Positions 24,133-31,289 of a stretch of DNA of 41,190 nt are shown here, piece by piece. Each line of letters opens with the position of its first letter. The stretch's first letter is position 1. The notes beneath the pieces were generated by a model. The model ran no database searches and was not told the DNA's origin. It saw only the letters and a list, made by a program, of their open reading frames with translations. The position numbers and the translations under genes are program-made. The DNA is from an uncultured Parvularculaceae bacterium (lineage in GTDB: Bacteria; Pseudomonadota; Alphaproteobacteria; Caulobacterales; Parvularculaceae): NCBI GenBank assembly GCA_913055785.1, contig CAJXLJ010000027.1:1-41190 (forward strand), written 5' to 3'.

Positions 24133-24804
24133 ATGAACGCCCCAACGGTCAAGATTTGCGGGGTCAAGGATATTGAGACGGCGCTCGCCGCCGCCCGCGC
24201 CGGCGCCGGTTTTCTCGGTTTCGTTTTCTTCCGTAAAAGCCCTCGCTTCATAACGCCCGAGGCGGCGGAAGAGCTCATTCTGGAGCTCAAACAGGCGAGT
24301 TTTAACGAAGGCTTCGAGCTGCCGAAACTGGTGGGGCTGTTTGTCGATGCGGGCGAAAAGGAGCTTTCCGAAGTCGCGCCGTTCCTGACGCATTTCCAGT
24401 TCCACGGCCATGAAAGCCCGGAGCGCTGCCGCGACATGGGCGCCGACTTCGCTGTCGACGTCATCAAGGCGGCGTCGGTGACCGGCAAAGAAGATATCGC
24501 CAGCGCTGAGGCTTATCAGGACATGGCGGACATCATCCTGTTCGATGCCAAGCCGCCCCCGGGCGCAGGACGGCCGGGCGGCAATGGCGTTTCCTTCGAC
24601 TGGTCGGCGCTCGCCGCCTATTCAGGCGAAACGCCCTATCTGGTCGCCGGCGGGCTGACGCCGGACACCGTCGCGGCAGCGGTCGCCGCCCAGAAATCTC
24701 CAGCCTTTCTGGGGGTCGACGTCTCTTCCGGGGTCGAAAGCGCGCCGGGCAAGAAGGACGAGGCGCTGATCAAGGCGTTTATTGCAGCGGCGAAGACCGG
24801 GTAA
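24133..24804 (+). CDS. trpF: Phosphoribosylanthranilate isomerase TrpF
   Basis: Catalyses the Amadori rearrangement of N-(5'-phosphoribosyl)anthranilate to CdRP in tryptophan synthesis. The 223-residue barrel has the canonical V-K-I-C-G start with general base Cys9, the F-H-G strand, the general acid aspartate in I-I-L-F-D-A-K, G-G-N-G-V-S-F-D-W, and the phosphate loop A-G-G-L-T-P-D. This is the complete canonical copy, unlike the side-family member at the left edge. A lipoprotein gene separates it from trpB. Confidence 0.96.
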   Translation: MNAPTVKICGVKDIETALAAARAGAGFLGFVFFRKSPRFITPEAAEELILELKQASFNEGFELPKLVGLFVDAGEKELSEVAPFLTHFQFHGHESPERCRDMGADFAVDVIKAASVTGKEDIASAEAYQDMADIILFDAKPPPGAGRPGGNGVSFDWSALAAYSGETPYLVAGGLTPDTVAAAVAAQKSPAFLGVDVSSGVESAPGKKDEALIKAFIAAAKTG

Positions 24805-24894
24805 CGCCCCCCTTGCCCATCTCATTTCGGCTATCGATGGACGCTGATGCGCCAATGGCTTAGGCTCTGCTGAGGTAAAGCGGTGGGGAACATC

Positions 24895-25893
24895 ATGAAC
24901 TTCAATATGGCGGCGCCGGCGCGCCGGATAACGGCGATTTTTGCGCTGGGCCTCTTTGCTGTCTCTTGCGCTTCTGTCCAGAAGAGCAGTGGGACAACCG
25001 TTGCGCCGACGCGCCACGCCGGCGTTTACGGCGCCTCATCCGAGGCTTTGCGTGAGGCGGATGCGCTGCTGCGCGCGAACGGTTATTCCCGCGGCCTCAA
25101 TGTCAGCTATGCAGAAACCAACCGGGTCGAAATTGGTCCGTCGCTGGCGCGCACGACAATCCATGAACAATCGTTTGCGGCGCCCGACACTTCCTATTCG
25201 AAGCTCGATAACTTCGCGTCATCCGCCGTCAGCAAACCGGTCATTCTCGCCGCCGCCACACAGAATGGCGGCTGGGAGGAGGAGGAAAAGGCCTACCGGC
25301 ATACGATCAGCGGCATGACCTGCCCGAAGACGGAACTCATTCTTGCGATCTTTTCCGGCGATACGATCACCGTTTACCCGTTCGCGCTCACGCAGATTCA
25401 ACTCTTCGCCGAGGACGGATCGGACACGGCGTGCCACTATCTGGGTCTGAACGGTGCGGCGGCGTTCACGGTTTACGCCTCTCGCTGGCCGGAAGTGAGC
25501 CTCGACAATCATTTTGCAGGCGCCATGGGCGACATCGCGAAGGTGATGCCAGTGACGGCGGAAATGCCCGTTATTATGCCTGGAGACGACGAGGACGATG
25601 AGGAAGAGCAGAACGAAGGCCCGGCGTTTCCCTCATCAATAGAGGGTCCGACTAAAGCGGCGGCCTTTAAAGTCGAGCCCAGTTCGTCGAAGGCTGTCTT
25701 CAAAACCGTGCTCTGGCTCAACAAGACCGGCGACTGGCACGTGAAGGGCCGGCTGACATTCCCGATTATTGAGAATGCTCTTGATCTGGGCGCTGTCCTT
25801 ACAGAAGCGCTGGCGCATTCCTCCTATGAGGATCGTCTCGCCGAAGTCGATCGCCACATTAACACCGGCGGCCTCACTCAGGTTCGTTACTAG
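24895..25893 (+). CDS. Lipoprotein of unknown function inserted between trpF and trpB
   Basis: A 332-residue protein. The ATG at 24895 follows GGGGAA and opens a lipoprotein signal peptide (box F-A-V-S-C, Cys25). The mature part has no motif I recognise; it includes a hyperacidic run (D-D-E-D-D-E-E-E) in the third quarter and two aromatic/charged stretches near the end. In relatives trpF and trpB are normally adjacent, so this gene interrupts the block. Its GC content looks like its neighbours, so it is not obviously recent. Confidence 0.7.
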   Translation: MNFNMAAPARRITAIFALGLFAVSCASVQKSSGTTVAPTRHAGVYGASSEALREADALLRANGYSRGLNVSYAETNRVEIGPSLARTTIHEQSFAAPDTSYSKLDNFASSAVSKPVILAAATQNGGWEEEEKAYRHTISGMTCPKTELILAIFSGDTITVYPFALTQIQLFAEDGSDTACHYLGLNGAAAFTVYASRWPEVSLDNHFAGAMGDIAKVMPVTAEMPVIMPGDDEDDEEEQNEGPAFPSSIEGPTKAAAFKVEPSSSKAVFKTVLWLNKTGDWHVKGRLTFPIIENALDLGAVLTEALAHSSYEDRLAEVDRHINTGGLTQVRY

Positions 25894-25998: not shown

Positions 25999-27228
25999 GT
26001 GACCCAGCCAAATTCTTATCGTAATGGTCCTGACGCCGAAGGGCGTTTCGGCATATTCGGCGGACGCTTCGTCGCCGAAACCCTGATGCCGCTCGTGCTC
26101 GCGCTGGAGAAGGAGTATGACGCGGCGAAGAAGGACCAGGCTTTCAGGTCGGACCTCGAGTATTACCTCAAGCATTATGTCGGCAGGCCTTCGCCGCTCT
26201 ATTTCGCCGAGCGTCTGACCGGACATGTCCGCGGTAGGGCCGGCTCAGGCAAGGGCGCGAAAATCTATTTCAAGCGCGACGAGCTCAACCATACCGGCGC
26301 CCATAAGATCAATAATTGCATGGGTCAGATCCTGCTGGCGCAGCGCATGGGCAAGACCCGCATCATCGCCGAAACCGGCGCCGGCCAGCATGGCGTTGCG
26401 ACGGCGACAGTGTGCGCGCGTTTCGGTCTTCCTTGCGTCGTTTATATGGGCGCTACCGATGTCGAGCGGCAAAAGCCGAATGTTTTTCGCATGAAGCTTC
26501 TCGGCGCCGAGGTCATACCGGTGACGTCGGGCCGCGCGACCCTCAAGGACGCCATGAACGAGGCGCTGCGCGACTGGGTCGCGAATGTGGATTCAACCTT
26601 CTACATCATCGGTACGGCGGCGGGCCCGCATCCTTACCCGGCGATGGTCCGCGACTTTCAGTCGGTGATCGGCGAGGAAGCAAGGGCGCAGATGATGGAG
26701 GCCGAAGGGCGCCTGCCCGATGCGATCATGGCCTGTATCGGCGGCGGTTCGAACGCCATCGGTCTTTTCCATCCGTTTCTGGACGACAAGGACGTGAAGA
26801 TATTTGGCGTTGAGGCGGCGGGGCGGGGCCTTGATACGCCCGATCACGCCGCATCGCTGTCAGGCGGAAGGCCCGGCGTCCTTCACGGCAACCGTACATA
26901 TCTGTTGCAGGATGAGGACGGCCAGATTCTCGAGGGGCACTCGATTTCTGCGGGGCTCGATTATCCAGGCATCGGGCCGGAACACGCCTGGCTTCATGAA
27001 ACGGGCCGCGTTCAGTATCTCTCCGCGACGGACGCCGAGGCGCTGGACGCGTTTCAGCTTTGCGCCCGGCTTGAAGGGATCATCCCGGCGCTCGAGCCCG
27101 CCCACGCGCTCGCCCGCGCCCTCGACCTCGCCGCTTCCATGCGCCGCGAGGAGATCTTGCTCCTCAACATGTGCGGTCGCGGCGACAAGGACATTTTTTC
27201 GGTGATGGACTCGCTAGGGGCGGGGTAA
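25999..27228 (+). CDS. trpB: Tryptophan synthase beta chain TrpB, intact copy
   Basis: Condenses indole with serine using PLP. The 409-residue product starts at GTG (M-T-Q-P-N-S-Y-R) and has [10 protein letters not shown], the PLP lysine in H-T-G-A-H-K-I-N-N (near residue 103), [10 protein letters not shown], the phosphate-binding G-G-G-S-N-A-I-G, and the C-terminal C-G-R-G-D-K-D. A short basic insert (R-A-G-S-G-K-G) sits just before the PLP lysine region. No trpA follows. A 3' fragment of a second trpB lies 1.3 kb downstream, so this copy probably replaced a resident gene or was itself brought in. Confidence 0.96.
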
Positions 27229-27318
27229 GAGCGAACGAAAACAGGACGCGCAGCGTAGAAAGTCGGCAGCAACTAAAACCAATCACCGACATGCTTTTTG
27301 TCATAGGTTGAGTTGCGC

Positions 27319-27348
27319 TTGACCATCCTGCAAAAAGATTCCTATTCG
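27319..27348 (+). promoter_or_regulatory. Candidate promoter of the FAD monooxygenase gene
   Basis: TTGACC (27319-27324) matches the -35 consensus at 5 of 6 bases. An 18-base spacer leads to TATTCG, a weak -10. It lies in the 151-base gap between the intact trpB and the monooxygenase. The weak -10 makes this tentative. Confidence 0.3.
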
Positions 27349-27379
27349 ACTCATGCGAGCCACCCGCAAGGAACATGTG

Positions 27380-28534
27380 ATGCTGGATATTGCTATAGTC
27401 GGCGGAGGGGTCGCAGGTTTAACCACCGCAATTGCTTGTCAGGAAGCTGGACGAAACGCGCATATTTTTGAAAGCGCACCCGCCTTCGAAACGATTGGTG
27501 CGAGCCTTTCAATTTGGCCAAATGCTTTGGCGTGCCTCGGCGATTGGGGACTGGCCAACGAAATTGCCAGTTTGGGACACCCGATCAACTCTGTTGCCTG
27601 GCGACGTGCATCCGGCGAAGCGTACTACGAACTCGGGCTCGAAGAGATTTACTCCAAATTGGGATACTCCGGCATTTGCATTCGCCGAGCTGATTTACAT
27701 GCGCGTCTCGTGAGTGCGGTGCGAGAAAACACATGTCACACTGGTCATCGGCTTGCACAGGTAACGAAGCACGACGCAGCCGTGGAACTGGTTTTCGAGA
27801 ATGGAGAACGCGTCAAGGCCAGACACGTGATCGCAGCGGACGGCATTTGGTCAACCTTGCGCGCATCAGTTGTCAATGACGGTCCGCCAAAATATGCCGG
27901 TTACGGTGCGTGGCTAGGCCTTTCGCCTGCGCCGGCGCCCAGCTTTGCTAACGATGAAGCGGCAGAGTATTTCGGCCCCAATGGGCGCATGGGTATTCTG
28001 GAAACCGGCAATGACACCCGTTATTGGTATGTGATTGCCAACCGAGACATCCCTATTGACCGCGCCGGCAAGGCGAAGCTTTCAGATGTTCTCGTTCATT
28101 TGCAGGATTGGCCTGATTATTTGAAAGATATCGCGTCTCAAAGCCGTGACGAGGGTGTCATTTATGTTTCGTTTTACGAGCGCTCGCTTGCATCAAAGTG
28201 GGGAGACGACCAGATCACACTGGTTGGCGATGCTATACATCCCTTCGCGCCCAACCTTGGGCAGGGCGCGTGTCAGGCGATAGAAGATGGGCATGCGATT
28301 GGCCGGGCCTTGATGGAAAATGTGTCGCTGAACGATTTCAGCGTTTGGATAAAAAACGACCGATCAAAGCGTGTCGAATACATTAATTCGCGTTCCACCC
28401 GGATCGGTCAGTTGATTCAAAAGAACGCCATCCTGTCCACCCTGACGCGAAATATGATGGGATGGGAGCCTGCACGGCAAAATCTGGCTCATGAATTTCG
28501 CAGGCAGTTTACCTTGCCAGATGGTGTCCGCTAA
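27380..28534 (+). CDS. FAD-dependent group A monooxygenase (aromatic hydroxylase type), compositionally foreign
   Basis: A 384-residue flavoprotein hydroxylase of the salicylate / 3-hydroxybenzoate / urate hydroxylase type. Motifs are the GxGxxG of I-V-G-G-G-V-A-G-L at the N-terminus, the DG motif ([10 protein letters not shown], near 153) and the GD motif ([16 protein letters not shown], near 282). AAGGAA precedes the ATG at 27380; GTG at 27377 is an alternative. Three 60-base rows counted by hand give 43-55% GC, well below the roughly 60% or more of the flanking genes. Position between the two trpB copies suggests an aromatic substrate of the indole or anthranilate sort, but that is only association. 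Confidence 0.85.
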
Positions 28535-28556
28535 GGCGCAAAAATCTGCTTATGGA

Positions 28557-28877
28557 ATAACCTGGCTGCTTGACGGCCAGATCACCGATGCCCACTCCAT
28601 TTCCGCCGGACTCGACTATCCGGGCATCGGGCCAGAACACGCCTGGCTTCACGAGACCGGCCGCGTTCAGTATCTCTCGGCGACCGACGCCGAAGCGCTG
28701 GAGATGTTTCAGCTTTGCTCAAGGCTCGAAGGGATCATCCCGGCGCCTGAGCCGGCGCACGCCCTTGCGCGCGCCGTTGACCTGGCTGCGGAAATGCGCC
28801 GCGAAGAAATTCTGCTCATGAATATGTGCGGACGTGGCGACAAGGATATCTTTTCGGTGATGGACGCGCTCGCCTAG
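28557..28877 (+). pseudogene. 3' remnant of a second trpB
   Basis: About the last 101 codons of a tryptophan synthase beta gene, ending in its own TAG at 28875. From D-G-Q-I to the end it matches the intact TrpB at 89 of 101 residues, including [13 protein letters not shown] and [10 protein letters not shown]. The left break is about 28545-28570, where similarity fades into the end of the monooxygenase locus. In the 36 codons from the H-S-I-S motif onward I count 13 synonymous changes and no amino-acid change. The fragment lacks the PLP lysine and cannot be active. Confidence 0.9.
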
Positions 28878-28886
28878 CGCCTCGGC

Positions 28887-29801
28887 TTACGCTGCCGGCG
28901 TGTCGTCGATGAAGTCGTGAATGTCGCTGAAACAGCCGACCATGCGCACGGCGCGGCCCTGGTCGTTGCGCATCGCCTTGCCGCGCGAGCGGAACCAGCG
29001 ATAGTCGCCTTCCACAGTCTTGAGGCGAAATTTGACATTGTAAGGCGTCTGTTCGCCGATGTGCCGATTCAAGGCCTCCTTGTGTCCCTTGAGATCGTCC
29101 GGATGAATGGCGCGTTCGATCTGCTCAAGATCATAAGGGCCGCGACCTTTTTTGTAGCCGAGGATCGTCTGTATCCGTTTTGAAATGGTGGCGCCTCCGG
29201 TGACGATATCCCAGTCCCAGATGCCGTCCGAAGCTTCGTTGGCGGCCCATGAGTAGCGCTCGAGTTGCTGCGTACTCTCAAGGGCGGCGGCTGCGCGTGC
29301 GCTGAAGTGTTCCAGCACCGCCGCCAGCGAGTTCTCGTTGTCCATCGGCGTTCTTGACAGGCCAACGACGAGGCCGAGCGGTACGCCTTCGCTGGATAGC
29401 AAATTGACGCCGACATAACCCTCAATGCCGTTGTCTTCCAGAAAGCGATCTCTCGGAAACAGCTCGGCGACGCCATTAGGATAGGCGCAACAGGCGCTAT
29501 CGATGACGCGCGCGCATGGGGTGCCGTCCAGCCCGTAGGTGAAATTCGGAGCGAGCTCACCATCAACAACATGGCAGATGGAGCGCGTGATGTTCGAGAA
29601 CGGATTGACGAGGCCGATCATGAAAAAGTCGAGTTTGAACGTCTCGGCGGCGGCGAGCGCAAAAGCGCGGAGAAACTGATCGCACGATACATGCGCGAGT
29701 TTCATCGCCATCCTGGCGATCATCGCTTCGGCGCTAGATTGTTCGCGCCCGAAAGCCTGTTCGAGCTGCTCCTGCATCTGCGCTGCGCTGACTTGCGACA
29801 T
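28887..29801 (-). CDS. GAF-PAS sensory protein without output domain
   Basis: A 304-residue cytoplasmic sensor. A GAF domain (about 38-180) shows L-D-G-T-P-C-A-R-V-I and G-Y-V-G-V-N-L-L-S-S-E-G-V-P-L-G, the pattern common in sensor kinases. A PAS domain (about 184-300, PAS_3 type) shows S-D-G-I-W-D-W-D, H-P-D-D-L and Y-R-W-F-R-S-R-G. The chain stops after the PAS domain, with no kinase, GGDEF, EAL or HTH part, so it is a stand-alone input module or adaptor. The ligand is unknown. It lies immediately after the trpB remnant, tail to tail with it, and is divergent from the M20 gene. Confidence 0.8.
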   Translation of the reverse strand: MSQVSAAQMQEQLEQAFGREQSSAEAMIARMAMKLAHVSCDQFLRAFALAAAETFKLDFFMIGLVNPFSNITRSICHVVDGELAPNFTYGLDGTPCARVIDSACCAYPNGVAELFPRDRFLEDNGIEGYVGVNLLSSEGVPLGLVVGLSRTPMDNENSLAAVLEHFSARAAAALESTQQLERYSWAANEASDGIWDWDIVTGGATISKRIQTILGYKKGRGPYDLEQIERAIHPDDLKGHKEALNRHIGEQTPYNVKFRLKTVEGDYRWFRSRGKAMRNDQGRAVRMVGCFSDIHDFIDDTPAA

Positions 29802-29978: not shown

Positions 29979-31289
29979 ATGAAACCGCCCCTCGCCGCCG
30001 CGTTCGTTTTCCTTGTCGGATTGCCGTTGAGTCCCGTTTTGGCGCAGTCTGATCTTCGCGCCGCCATCGCGGCCGATTACGACGTCAATCTCAAAGCCCT
30101 TTTTGAACATTTTCATGCAAATCCCGAGTTGTCTTTTCTCGAATTCGAGACTGCGCGAAGGCTCGCCGCAGAGCTGCGGGCGCTCGACTATGAGGTGACG
30201 GAAGGCGTCGGCGGGACCGGGGTCGTGGCGGTTTTTAAAAACGGCGACGGTCCGACAGTGCTGGTTCGCGCCGACATGGACGGTCTGCCGGTCAGGGAGG
30301 ACAACAATCTGCCCTACAGGTCGACGGCGACGCAGGAGGACACCGACGGCGTTGTCAAACCGGTCATGCATGCGTGCGGTCATGACGTGCATGTCACTTC
30401 CCTGATCGGGACCGCCCGGCAAATGGCGGCGCGCAAGGATCAGTGGTCGGGAACGCTGGTCCTGATCGGGCAGCCGGCGGAAGAGCGCATTTCCGGCGCC
30501 CGAAACATGCTTGAAGACGGTCTCTACAGGCGCTTTCCGAAACCGGATTACGCGCTCGCGCTGCATGTCCATGCGGACAAGCCTGCAGGCCGCGTCGACG
30601 TGCCGCTCGGCATTCGCGCCTCCAGCGCCGACAGCGTCGACATCATCGTTCATGGCGTCGGCGCGCATGGCGCCTCTCCCCACAAGGGCGTTGATCCTGT
30701 GCTGGTCGCCGCCCAGATTGTTGTGTCGCTTCAGTCGGTCGTATCGCGGAGCATCAATCCGCAGGAGGCCGGCGTGATTACAGTCGGCGCCATTAATGGC
30801 GGGTCGAAACACAACATCATCGGCGATCGCGTCGAGATGCAGCTCACCGTCCGCTCCAACAATCCGGAGGTCCGAATGCAGCTTCTCGACGCAATCGACC
30901 GGGTGGCGGAAGGGGTTGCGATATCGATGGGCGTTCCGAAAGACCTGATGCCTGAAGTCATCCGCTCAAAGACGGAAACGACGCCGCCGACGATCAATGA
31001 CCGCGCGACGGCGGAGGTTGTCCGCGCCGCGATTACCGCGAAAATGGGCGAGGGGGTTCTGATCGACAAGCCGCGCGAAGGCATGGGCGCGGAGGATTTC
31101 GCCTATTTTGTAACGCCTGAAAGCGGCGTTAAGGGCGTTTACATGAATGTCGGCGGCACGCTCGAGAAAAACCTCGGCAAGGCCGCTTCGCATCATTCGC
31201 CGCTATTCAGAATAGAACCAGAGCCTTCCATCAAGACTGGCGTTGAAGCGATGACGACAGCCGCCATCGCTCTTTTCAACGCGGAATAG
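29979..31289 (+). CDS. Exported M20D amidohydrolase (hippurate hydrolase / aminoacylase-like)
   Basis: A periplasmic zinc-dependent amidase of 436 residues with a signal peptide ending V-L-A-Q (about residue 22). GGGAGAA precedes the ATG. Metal and catalytic motifs are R-A-D-M-D-G-L-P-V, M-H-A-C-G-H-D-V-H (near 130), Q-P-A-E-E, a distal H-V-H-A and G-M-G-A-E-D-F-A-Y-F near the end. This pattern belongs to the M20D N-acyl amino acid / amino acid amide hydrolases; most relatives are cytoplasmic, so the signal peptide is notable. The substrate is unknown. Its stop lies 3 bases from the convergent DUF2807 gene. Confidence 0.9.
   Translation: MKPPLAAAFVFLVGLPLSPVLAQSDLRAAIAADYDVNLKALFEHFHANPELSFLEFETARRLAAELRALDYEVTEGVGGTGVVAVFKNGDGPTVLVRADMDGLPVREDNNLPYRSTATQEDTDGVVKPVMHACGHDVHVTSLIGTARQMAARKDQWSGTLVLIGQPAEERISGARNMLEDGLYRRFPKPDYALALHVHADKPAGRVDVPLGIRASSADSVDIIVHGVGAHGASPHKGVDPVLVAAQIVVSLQSVVSRSINPQEAGVITVGAINGGSKHNIIGDRVEMQLTVRSNNPEVRMQLLDAIDRVAEGVAISMGVPKDLMPEVIRSKTETTPPTINDRATAEVVRAAITAKMGEGVLIDKPREGMGAEDFAYFVTPESGVKGVYMNVGGTLEKNLGKAASHHSPLFRIEPEPSIKTGVEAMTTAAIALFNAE

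What the first reader, a model, noticed from the sequence alone, without database searches (positions are those of the whole stretch)
26910..28877. A trpB 3' remnant beside an intact trpB points to gene replacement, not decay of a duplicate
The last 101 codons of a second trpB lie 1.3 kb after the intact gene and match it at 89 of 101 residues. In the 36 codons from the H-S-I-S motif onward I count 13 synonymous and no amino-acid differences. A copy decaying since duplication would accumulate replacement changes freely; this pattern means both sequences evolved under selection in separate lineages until recently. So one trpB is a xenologue that displaced the other, leaving only the 3' end behind.
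Basis: partly seen in the sequence, partly recalled or inferred. Interest (0 to 1): 0.72.

Follow-up and report, generated by a model that had tools for sequence, protein, structure and literature searches.

The report
Recombination scar after a tryptophan gene
Behind an intact tryptophan-synthase gene sits a foreign-looking enzyme gene followed by the tail end of a second, related copy of the same gene; this looks like the ordinary footprint of a recent recombination event that brought the enzyme gene in, not a slowly rotting duplicate.

Summary
Codons 307-407 of a second trpB lie at 28572-28877, 1.3 kb after the intact gene, with 89 of 101 residues identical. The selection argument holds too: dN/dS is 0.075, like species pairs in the genus (median 0.0785), and a codon model rejects neutral evolution on the remnant's branch, leaving at most about 5-10% of it for decay. 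Both copies diverged as working genes and the fragment is young. The copies do not branch with different sampled lineages: they are each other's nearest kin (96-97/95 support), though topology tests leave alternatives open. The intact gene stands in its ancestral gene order, so whole-gene displacement is not needed. Between the copies lies a low-GC3 FAD monooxygenase without a close relative in the genomes searched. The simplest reading is a one-ended (single-crossover or homology-facilitated illegitimate) capture of a 'trpB 3' end + monooxygenase' fragment from an unsampled sister lineage. Which copy is native cannot be decided; old paralogy and misassembly remain possible. It is a new example of a known kind of footprint; interest is low.

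The parts
25999..27228 (+). intact trpB (tryptophan synthase beta subunit), 409 aa; its 26917-27215 is the segment repeated downstream
   Evidence: gene order upstream as in relatives
27229..27379 (+). spacer between trpB and the likely start of the monooxygenase; its first 124 bp have GC 0.476; no promoter-like or terminator-like match
27380..28534 (+). FAD monooxygenase gene (ORF opens at 27353; start at 27380 is my choice); foreign-looking gene between the copies
   Evidence: PF01494 68.6 bits; GC3 0.546 against 0.726, sd 0.052, in 33 window ORFs, z -3.5; no match at E <= 1e-60 other than itself in class and phylum samples
28535..28571 (+). 37-bp segment (GC 0.459) holding the presumed non-homologous junction; its last 12 nt may be trpB too
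28572..28877 (+). trpB 3' remnant: codons 307-407 and stop, no stop or frameshift inside

Best explanation
The arrangement trpB - monooxygenase - trpB 3' end is the footprint of a recent one-ended homologous capture. A DNA fragment from an unsampled sister lineage, carrying the 3' end of its trpB followed by the monooxygenase gene, entered the cell and recombined in or upstream of the shared trpB 3' end. Its other end was joined without homology at about codon 307. Either the linear fragment did this itself (homology-facilitated illegitimate recombination), or it had first been ligated into a circle and went in by a single crossover. The result keeps one complete trpB, possibly with a donor 3' end, places the foreign gene behind it in the same direction, and strands a second 3' end that no longer makes an enzyme. 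Shown: the two copies, their selection history, their favoured sister position, and the deviant composition and rarity of the monooxygenase. Inferred: the donor, the crossover position, the order of events, and which copy is native.
For: Direct repeats of 299 nt at 82% flank a single gene. dN/dS 0.075 equals the genus median for species pairs, 0.0785 over 276 pairs of 24 genomes. Omega = 1 on the remnant branch: lnL -3395.61 against -3385.20; with a selected and then a neutral stretch the best neutral fraction is 1.6% (lnL -3384.20, only 1.0 better than none), and the fit has dropped 0.8 units at 5% and 2.7 at 10%. The copies are a sister pair at a depth like that of distinct species: 61 of 276 genus pairs have pS as low or lower. 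The monooxygenase has deviant GC3; in 59 relatives its best match is E = 1.7e-36 at 24% identity. trpF-trpB upstream and the M20, DUF2807, c3 and c4 genes downstream recur in relatives, so the change is confined to the spacer. None of 27 other genus genomes shows a second trpB tail (G010, G020 and G027 gave no match at all; G025 has a second full copy; one 29-nt match in G002 is taken as chance). A ComEC-type gene is present, but also in 10 of 14 control genomes.
Against: No donor and no empty-site sister genome was found; the best genus member is 83.5% identical over the trpB 5' part and 81.6% over the 3' part. HFIR products usually carry a deletion and microhomology (PMC3240628, introduction); here at least 303 bp are duplicated, which the single-crossover variant explains better. 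The same paper finds HFIR in conjugating E. coli perhaps too rare to matter for genome evolution. No mosaic signature: affinities of the intact 5' part correlate equally with the intact 3' part (rho 0.48) and with the remnant (0.49), and no switch point shows along the repeat. 303 nt is little data; the bootstrap had not settled and most AU tests are not significant. That the monooxygenase and the second tail arrived together is not shown.
Confidence: 0.6

Rival explanations
1. Whole-gene xenologous replacement: a complete foreign trpB, with or without the monooxygenase, replaced the native gene, and only the native 3' end was left.
For: dN/dS 0.075 and recent fragmentation; possible if the upstream breakpoint lies in or before trpB.
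Against: The copies are each other's nearest kin; the trpB 5' tree puts the intact gene on an unstarred lone branch inside the genus, giving no sign of a foreign 5' part. It needs more replaced DNA than the anatomy demands.
Confidence: 0.14
2. Old in-lineage duplication: trpB was duplicated long ago, both copies stayed functional, and the second was recently cut down to its 3' end by a deletion that also brought or left the monooxygenase.
For: The sister position of the copies and shared residues L377 and R382 fit paralogs just as well.
Against: Of 27 other genus genomes only G025 has a second full trpB, 98.8% identical to that of G005 and on a 4.5-kb contig, so a genus-wide old duplicate is not seen; a 36-residue 5' piece in G018 lies at a contig end. 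Long maintenance of two copies with one function is unusual (general knowledge).
Confidence: 0.13
3. Site-specific integration into the trpB 3' end, as e14 does in icd: an element supplied the 3' end and the displaced end lies at its far side; the element has since decayed to one gene.
For: Same geometry as e14/icd (passages of PMC6379469).
Against: The monooxygenase is the only ORF of 100 aa or more lying within the insert; the longest identical run between the copies is 20 nt, internal and not at the edge. Other window genes were not scanned for integrases.
Confidence: 0.06
4. Assembly artefact: a chimeric contig joining the same locus of two related genomes.
For: Draft assembly in 85 contigs with 1.72% contamination; both halves are syntenic with relatives.
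Against: A misjoin through shared trpB sequence would fuse within trpB and not leave a second copy after a non-homologous junction; GC3 is similar on both sides.
Confidence: 0.07

Closest known systems
Homology-facilitated illegitimate recombination (HFIR; S. pneumoniae, Acinetobacter baylyi, Pseudomonas stutzeri)
   Same: One homologous anchor, about 1 kb of foreign DNA beside it, non-homologous second junction (introduction of PMC3240628)
   Different: HFIR products generally carry a deletion of similar size and mostly a 3-10 bp microhomology; here at least 303 bp are duplicated and microhomology cannot be tested without the donor
Single-crossover integration of a fragment ligated into a circle (mentioned for E. 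coli in the abstract of PMC3240628)
   Same: One complete gene, then the insert, then a 5'-truncated copy, as direct repeats (the anatomy expected is general knowledge)
   Different: No vector sequence; donor unknown; crossover point not visible
Sequential effector displacement in Vibrio cholerae T6SS clusters
   Same: New module inserted at a conserved anchor, old 3' end shifted downstream (passages of PMC5361080)
   Different: There effector-immunity modules; here a housekeeping biosynthesis gene and a lone monooxygenase
e14 prophage in E. coli icd
   Same: Element supplies the gene's 3' end, and a 163-bp pseudo-copy of it remains (passages of PMC6379469)
   Different: No integrase or phage gene recognised in the insert, which holds one long ORF

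Membership tests
Functional trpB copy (as opposed to remnant) | Complete protein of about 400 residues | tested here: not met
   The remnant holds only residues 307-407; PALP score 22.4 against a cut-off of 35
Decaying duplicate | Neutral evolution (omega near 1) along the remnant branch | tested here: not met
   omega = 1 rejected by 10.4 lnL units; neutral fraction at most about 5-10% (own code, fixed tree)
Xenolog from a different sampled lineage | The two copies branch with different lineages | tested here: not met
   Sister pair 97/95 and 96/95; AU p 0.009-0.206 for 12 alternative groupings, 2 under 0.05, so not firmly excluded
HFIR product | Foreign insert next to a homologous anchor | tested here: met
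   Monooxygenase GC3 z -3.5, no ortholog among 59 relatives, next to trpB
HFIR product | Crossover inside the anchor | tested here: inconclusive
   No affinity switch
HFIR product | Target deletion of similar size | tested here: inconclusive
   At least 303 bp are duplicated; a deletion cannot be judged without the empty site
HFIR product | 3-10 bp microhomology at the illegitimate junction | not testable with these tools
   Donor sequence unknown
Single-crossover integrant | Direct repeats flanking the insert, one complete and one truncated copy | tested here: met
   (299 nt, 82%)
Site-specific integrative element | Identical core at the repeat edge | tested here: not met
   Longest identical runs 20, 19, 17 and 15 nt, all internal
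Site-specific integrative element | Integrase gene | tested here: inconclusive
   The insert's only ORF of 100 aa or more is the monooxygenase; genes elsewhere in the window were only partly scanned

The most novel reading that the evidence does not exclude
The 3' end of trpB is a recurrent entry point for foreign genes in this genus: after trpA was separated from trpB there, the conserved trpB tail served repeatedly as a homology anchor for one-ended gene capture, and this window shows one capture caught before its scar was lost. The genes next after trpB do differ among genus genomes, but no control spot was compared.
Probability: 0.1. Interest if true: 0.45.

Novelty: new member of a known kind. 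Interest (0 to 1): 0.2.

Why it matters
It is a clean footprint of gene capture next to a housekeeping gene: the remnant's divergence was built up under selection, so the event is much younger than the split of the two copies. Such scars can show how accessory genes enter conserved gene runs without a visible mobile element. By itself it changes no established view.

Tried and rejected
Rejected or left open: (1) Decay of a local duplicate. (2) Naming the donor: in the genus the remnant's best DNA matches are the intact copy (82%) and G007 (81%); 24 of 27 other genus genomes matched, G010, G020 and G027 did not; no near kin found. (3) A mosaic breakpoint: rank correlations and nucleotide polarity gave nothing. 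(4) The monooxygenase's origin: weak matches (E <= 1e-3) in 45 of 59 relatives, best 1.7e-36; no plasmid match at 1e-40; at 1e-60 no genome but its own among 385 of the class and 398 of the phylum, own included, samples overlapping. Nearest solved structures: 6-hydroxynicotinate 3-monooxygenase (1.9e-32) and a flavoprotein monooxygenase (6.5e-31); substrate unknown. (5) The PAS gene as a donor passenger: homologs at 39-50% in five genus genomes (G002, G004, G010, G017, G027), far from trpB on the same contig in G002 and G004 and on another contig in the other three. (6) Other second trpB copies: 284 of 385 class genomes match the 101 residues at E <= 1e-15, and 7 of these, this one included, have two matches. 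Of the other 6, five have a long second copy (one, G317, as two overlapping matches) and one (G285) a 57-residue piece on another contig. (7) A first codon-model fit did not move two branch lengths and was replaced. Rows dropped: G018b (5' piece) and G025b (second G025 copy) from the trees; G010, G027 and G031 lack the 3' part; G024 also left out of the rank correlation.

Full report
What is there. The window (contig C27 of a 3.26 Mb draft genome in 85 contigs) carries trpF (24133-24804), an unnamed gene (24883-25893), intact trpB (25999-27228), a monooxygenase gene (ORF 27353-28534), the 3' end of a second trpB (28572-28877), a PAS-domain gene on the minus strand (28887-29801) and an M20-family gene (29979-31289). 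The finding's numbers hold: 12 differences in 101 residues, and 13 synonymous and 0 replacement differences in 36 codons. The trpB contig of one genus genome, G003, has 27699 bases, as has CAMYLZ010000031.1, titled uncultured Parvularculaceae bacterium; I infer that the organism is of that alphaproteobacterial family (lineage).

Selection history. Between the copies pS is 0.545, pN 0.070 and dN/dS 0.075 (Nei-Gojobori, own script). Among 276 pairs of 24 other genus genomes the median dN/dS is 0.0785 (range 0 to 0.211). A two-class codon model of my own on the fixed 26-row tree gives lnL -3385.20 with the background omega on the remnant branch, -3385.06 with a free omega (1.3 times background) and -3395.61 with omega = 1. 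A selected-then-neutral model is best at 1.6% neutral (-3384.20) and falls to -3385.03 at 5% and -3386.85 at 10%. One striking replacement is L365P in the remnant, where 24 of 24 genus genomes have L. Polarity is even: of 53 nucleotide differences 26 favour the intact copy, 25 the remnant, 2 neither. So both copies diverged as working genes and the fragment is young.

Phylogeny. On the shared codons the copies are sisters with starred support, 97/95 in 34 rows (bootstrap not fully settled) and 96/95 in 26 genus rows, at 81.6% nucleotide identity. Residues L377 and R382 are shared by both and seen in none of 24 other genus genomes. AU tests of 12 alternative groupings gave p from 0.009 to 0.206, 2 under 0.05, so the pairing is favoured but not proven. 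The rpoB tree (25 rows, quick method) puts this genome on its own branch (0.097, near the median of 0.094) beside G001, G013, G015 and G023; the trpB 5' tree leaves it on an unstarred lone branch. No near relative is held: the best identity is 83.5% over the 5' part.

Surroundings. Of 37 fetched loci of relatives, 25 show ubiE, lapA, trpF and trpB in this order and 35 show at least trpF and trpB; the rest are mostly cut by contig ends (my count). The name lapA is recalled: no NCBIfam model hit that protein. So the intact gene stands where it should. Downstream, M20 (c1), DUF2807 (c2) and clusters c3 and c4 recur in 10, 9, 8 and 6 genomes, this one included, with variable genes between trpB and them. 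Of 7 family genomes of other genera with sequence after trpB, 5 have cluster c5 within about 5 kb (G028, G029, G032, G033, G034). Its match in this genome is the trpA hit on contig C3, with the matches of c10 and c12 beside it; I take c10 and c12 to be accD and folC (recalled, not searched). No genus genome has c5 in the stretch of up to 9 kb after trpB that was looked at, some stretches being short.

The gene between the copies. The monooxygenase has GC3 0.546 against a mean of 0.726 (sd 0.052) in 33 mechanically called window ORFs of at least 180 codons; z -3.5, lowest other value 0.593. In 59 relatives, 45 have some match at E <= 1e-3, the best at 1.7e-36 and 24% identity. At E <= 1e-60 only its own genome matches among 385 genomes of the class and 398 of the phylum, own included. 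It scores over the Pfam cut-off of FAD_binding_3 and over no NCBIfam cut-off among the 25 of 65 rows shown. No promoter-like or terminator-like match was found in 27000-29000. No other ORF of 100 aa or more lies within the insert.

Mechanism. Complete gene, foreign gene, 5'-truncated second copy as a direct repeat: this is what a single crossover of a circularised fragment, or a one-ended homology-facilitated illegitimate event, would leave. HFIR is described for three naturally competent species, with about 1 kb inserted, about 1 kb deleted and mostly 3-10 bp microhomology (PMC3240628, introduction; abstract); that paper also judges it perhaps too rare in conjugating E. coli to shape the genome. 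A Vibrio study offers it to explain displaced 3' ends (PMC5361080, passages). A study of three species' genomes holds illegitimate recombination responsible for many small variable segments and proposes homology-assisted events for some (PMC2884548, passages). Merodiploid formation in pneumococcus (PMC3784515, abstract and section list) is a looser parallel with duplications of about 100-900 kb. A ComEC-type gene is present, as in 10 of 14 control genomes, so that is weak support.

Literature. 'Parvularculaceae' with 'trpB' gave 0 papers. Trp terms with remnant, horizontal gene transfer and pseudogene (4 of 5 terms) gave 26 papers, 12 listed; judged by titles and starts of abstracts only, none of the 12 describes this arrangement. 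Both searches cover only the open-licence library.

Verdict. Observation confirmed; selection reading confirmed; 'xenologue that displaced the other' only partly supported. The donor was most likely an unsampled sister lineage, the displaced length may be no more than the trpB tail, and capture of the monooxygenase is the likely reason that the scar exists. Old paralogy, whole-gene replacement and misassembly remain possible.

Noticed in passing
G000:C3, L231 7353-10441: trpA, with two genes that I take to be accD and folC, lies on another contig; in 5 of 7 family genomes of other genera that have sequence after trpB the trpA-like cluster lies within about 5 kb of trpB, in no genus genome looked at.
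   Followed up: partly
G020 (same genus): A genome rated 100% complete with 0 contamination has no match to trpB better than E = 2.4e-6, so it may lack trpB.
   Followed up: no
L053 (G025:C2) and L046 (G005:C82): G025 carries a second full trpB on a 4.5-kb contig, identical to that of G005 in 1230 of 1245 columns: contamination or very recent transfer.
   Followed up: partly
window 24883-25893: An unnamed gene between trpF and trpB has homologs at 35-40% identity in the same place in five genus genomes (G010, G019, G022, G025, G026) and no Pfam or NCBIfam match.
   Followed up: no
window 28887-29801 (-): A PAS-domain gene converges on the remnant with 9 bp between them; its homologs in G002 and G004 lie far from trpB, so it may also be a newcomer here.
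   Followed up: partly
G285:C227:6482-6652 (L263): Another alphaproteobacterium has a 57-residue trpB piece (61% identity) on a separate contig, a possible second case of a partial copy.
   Followed up: no
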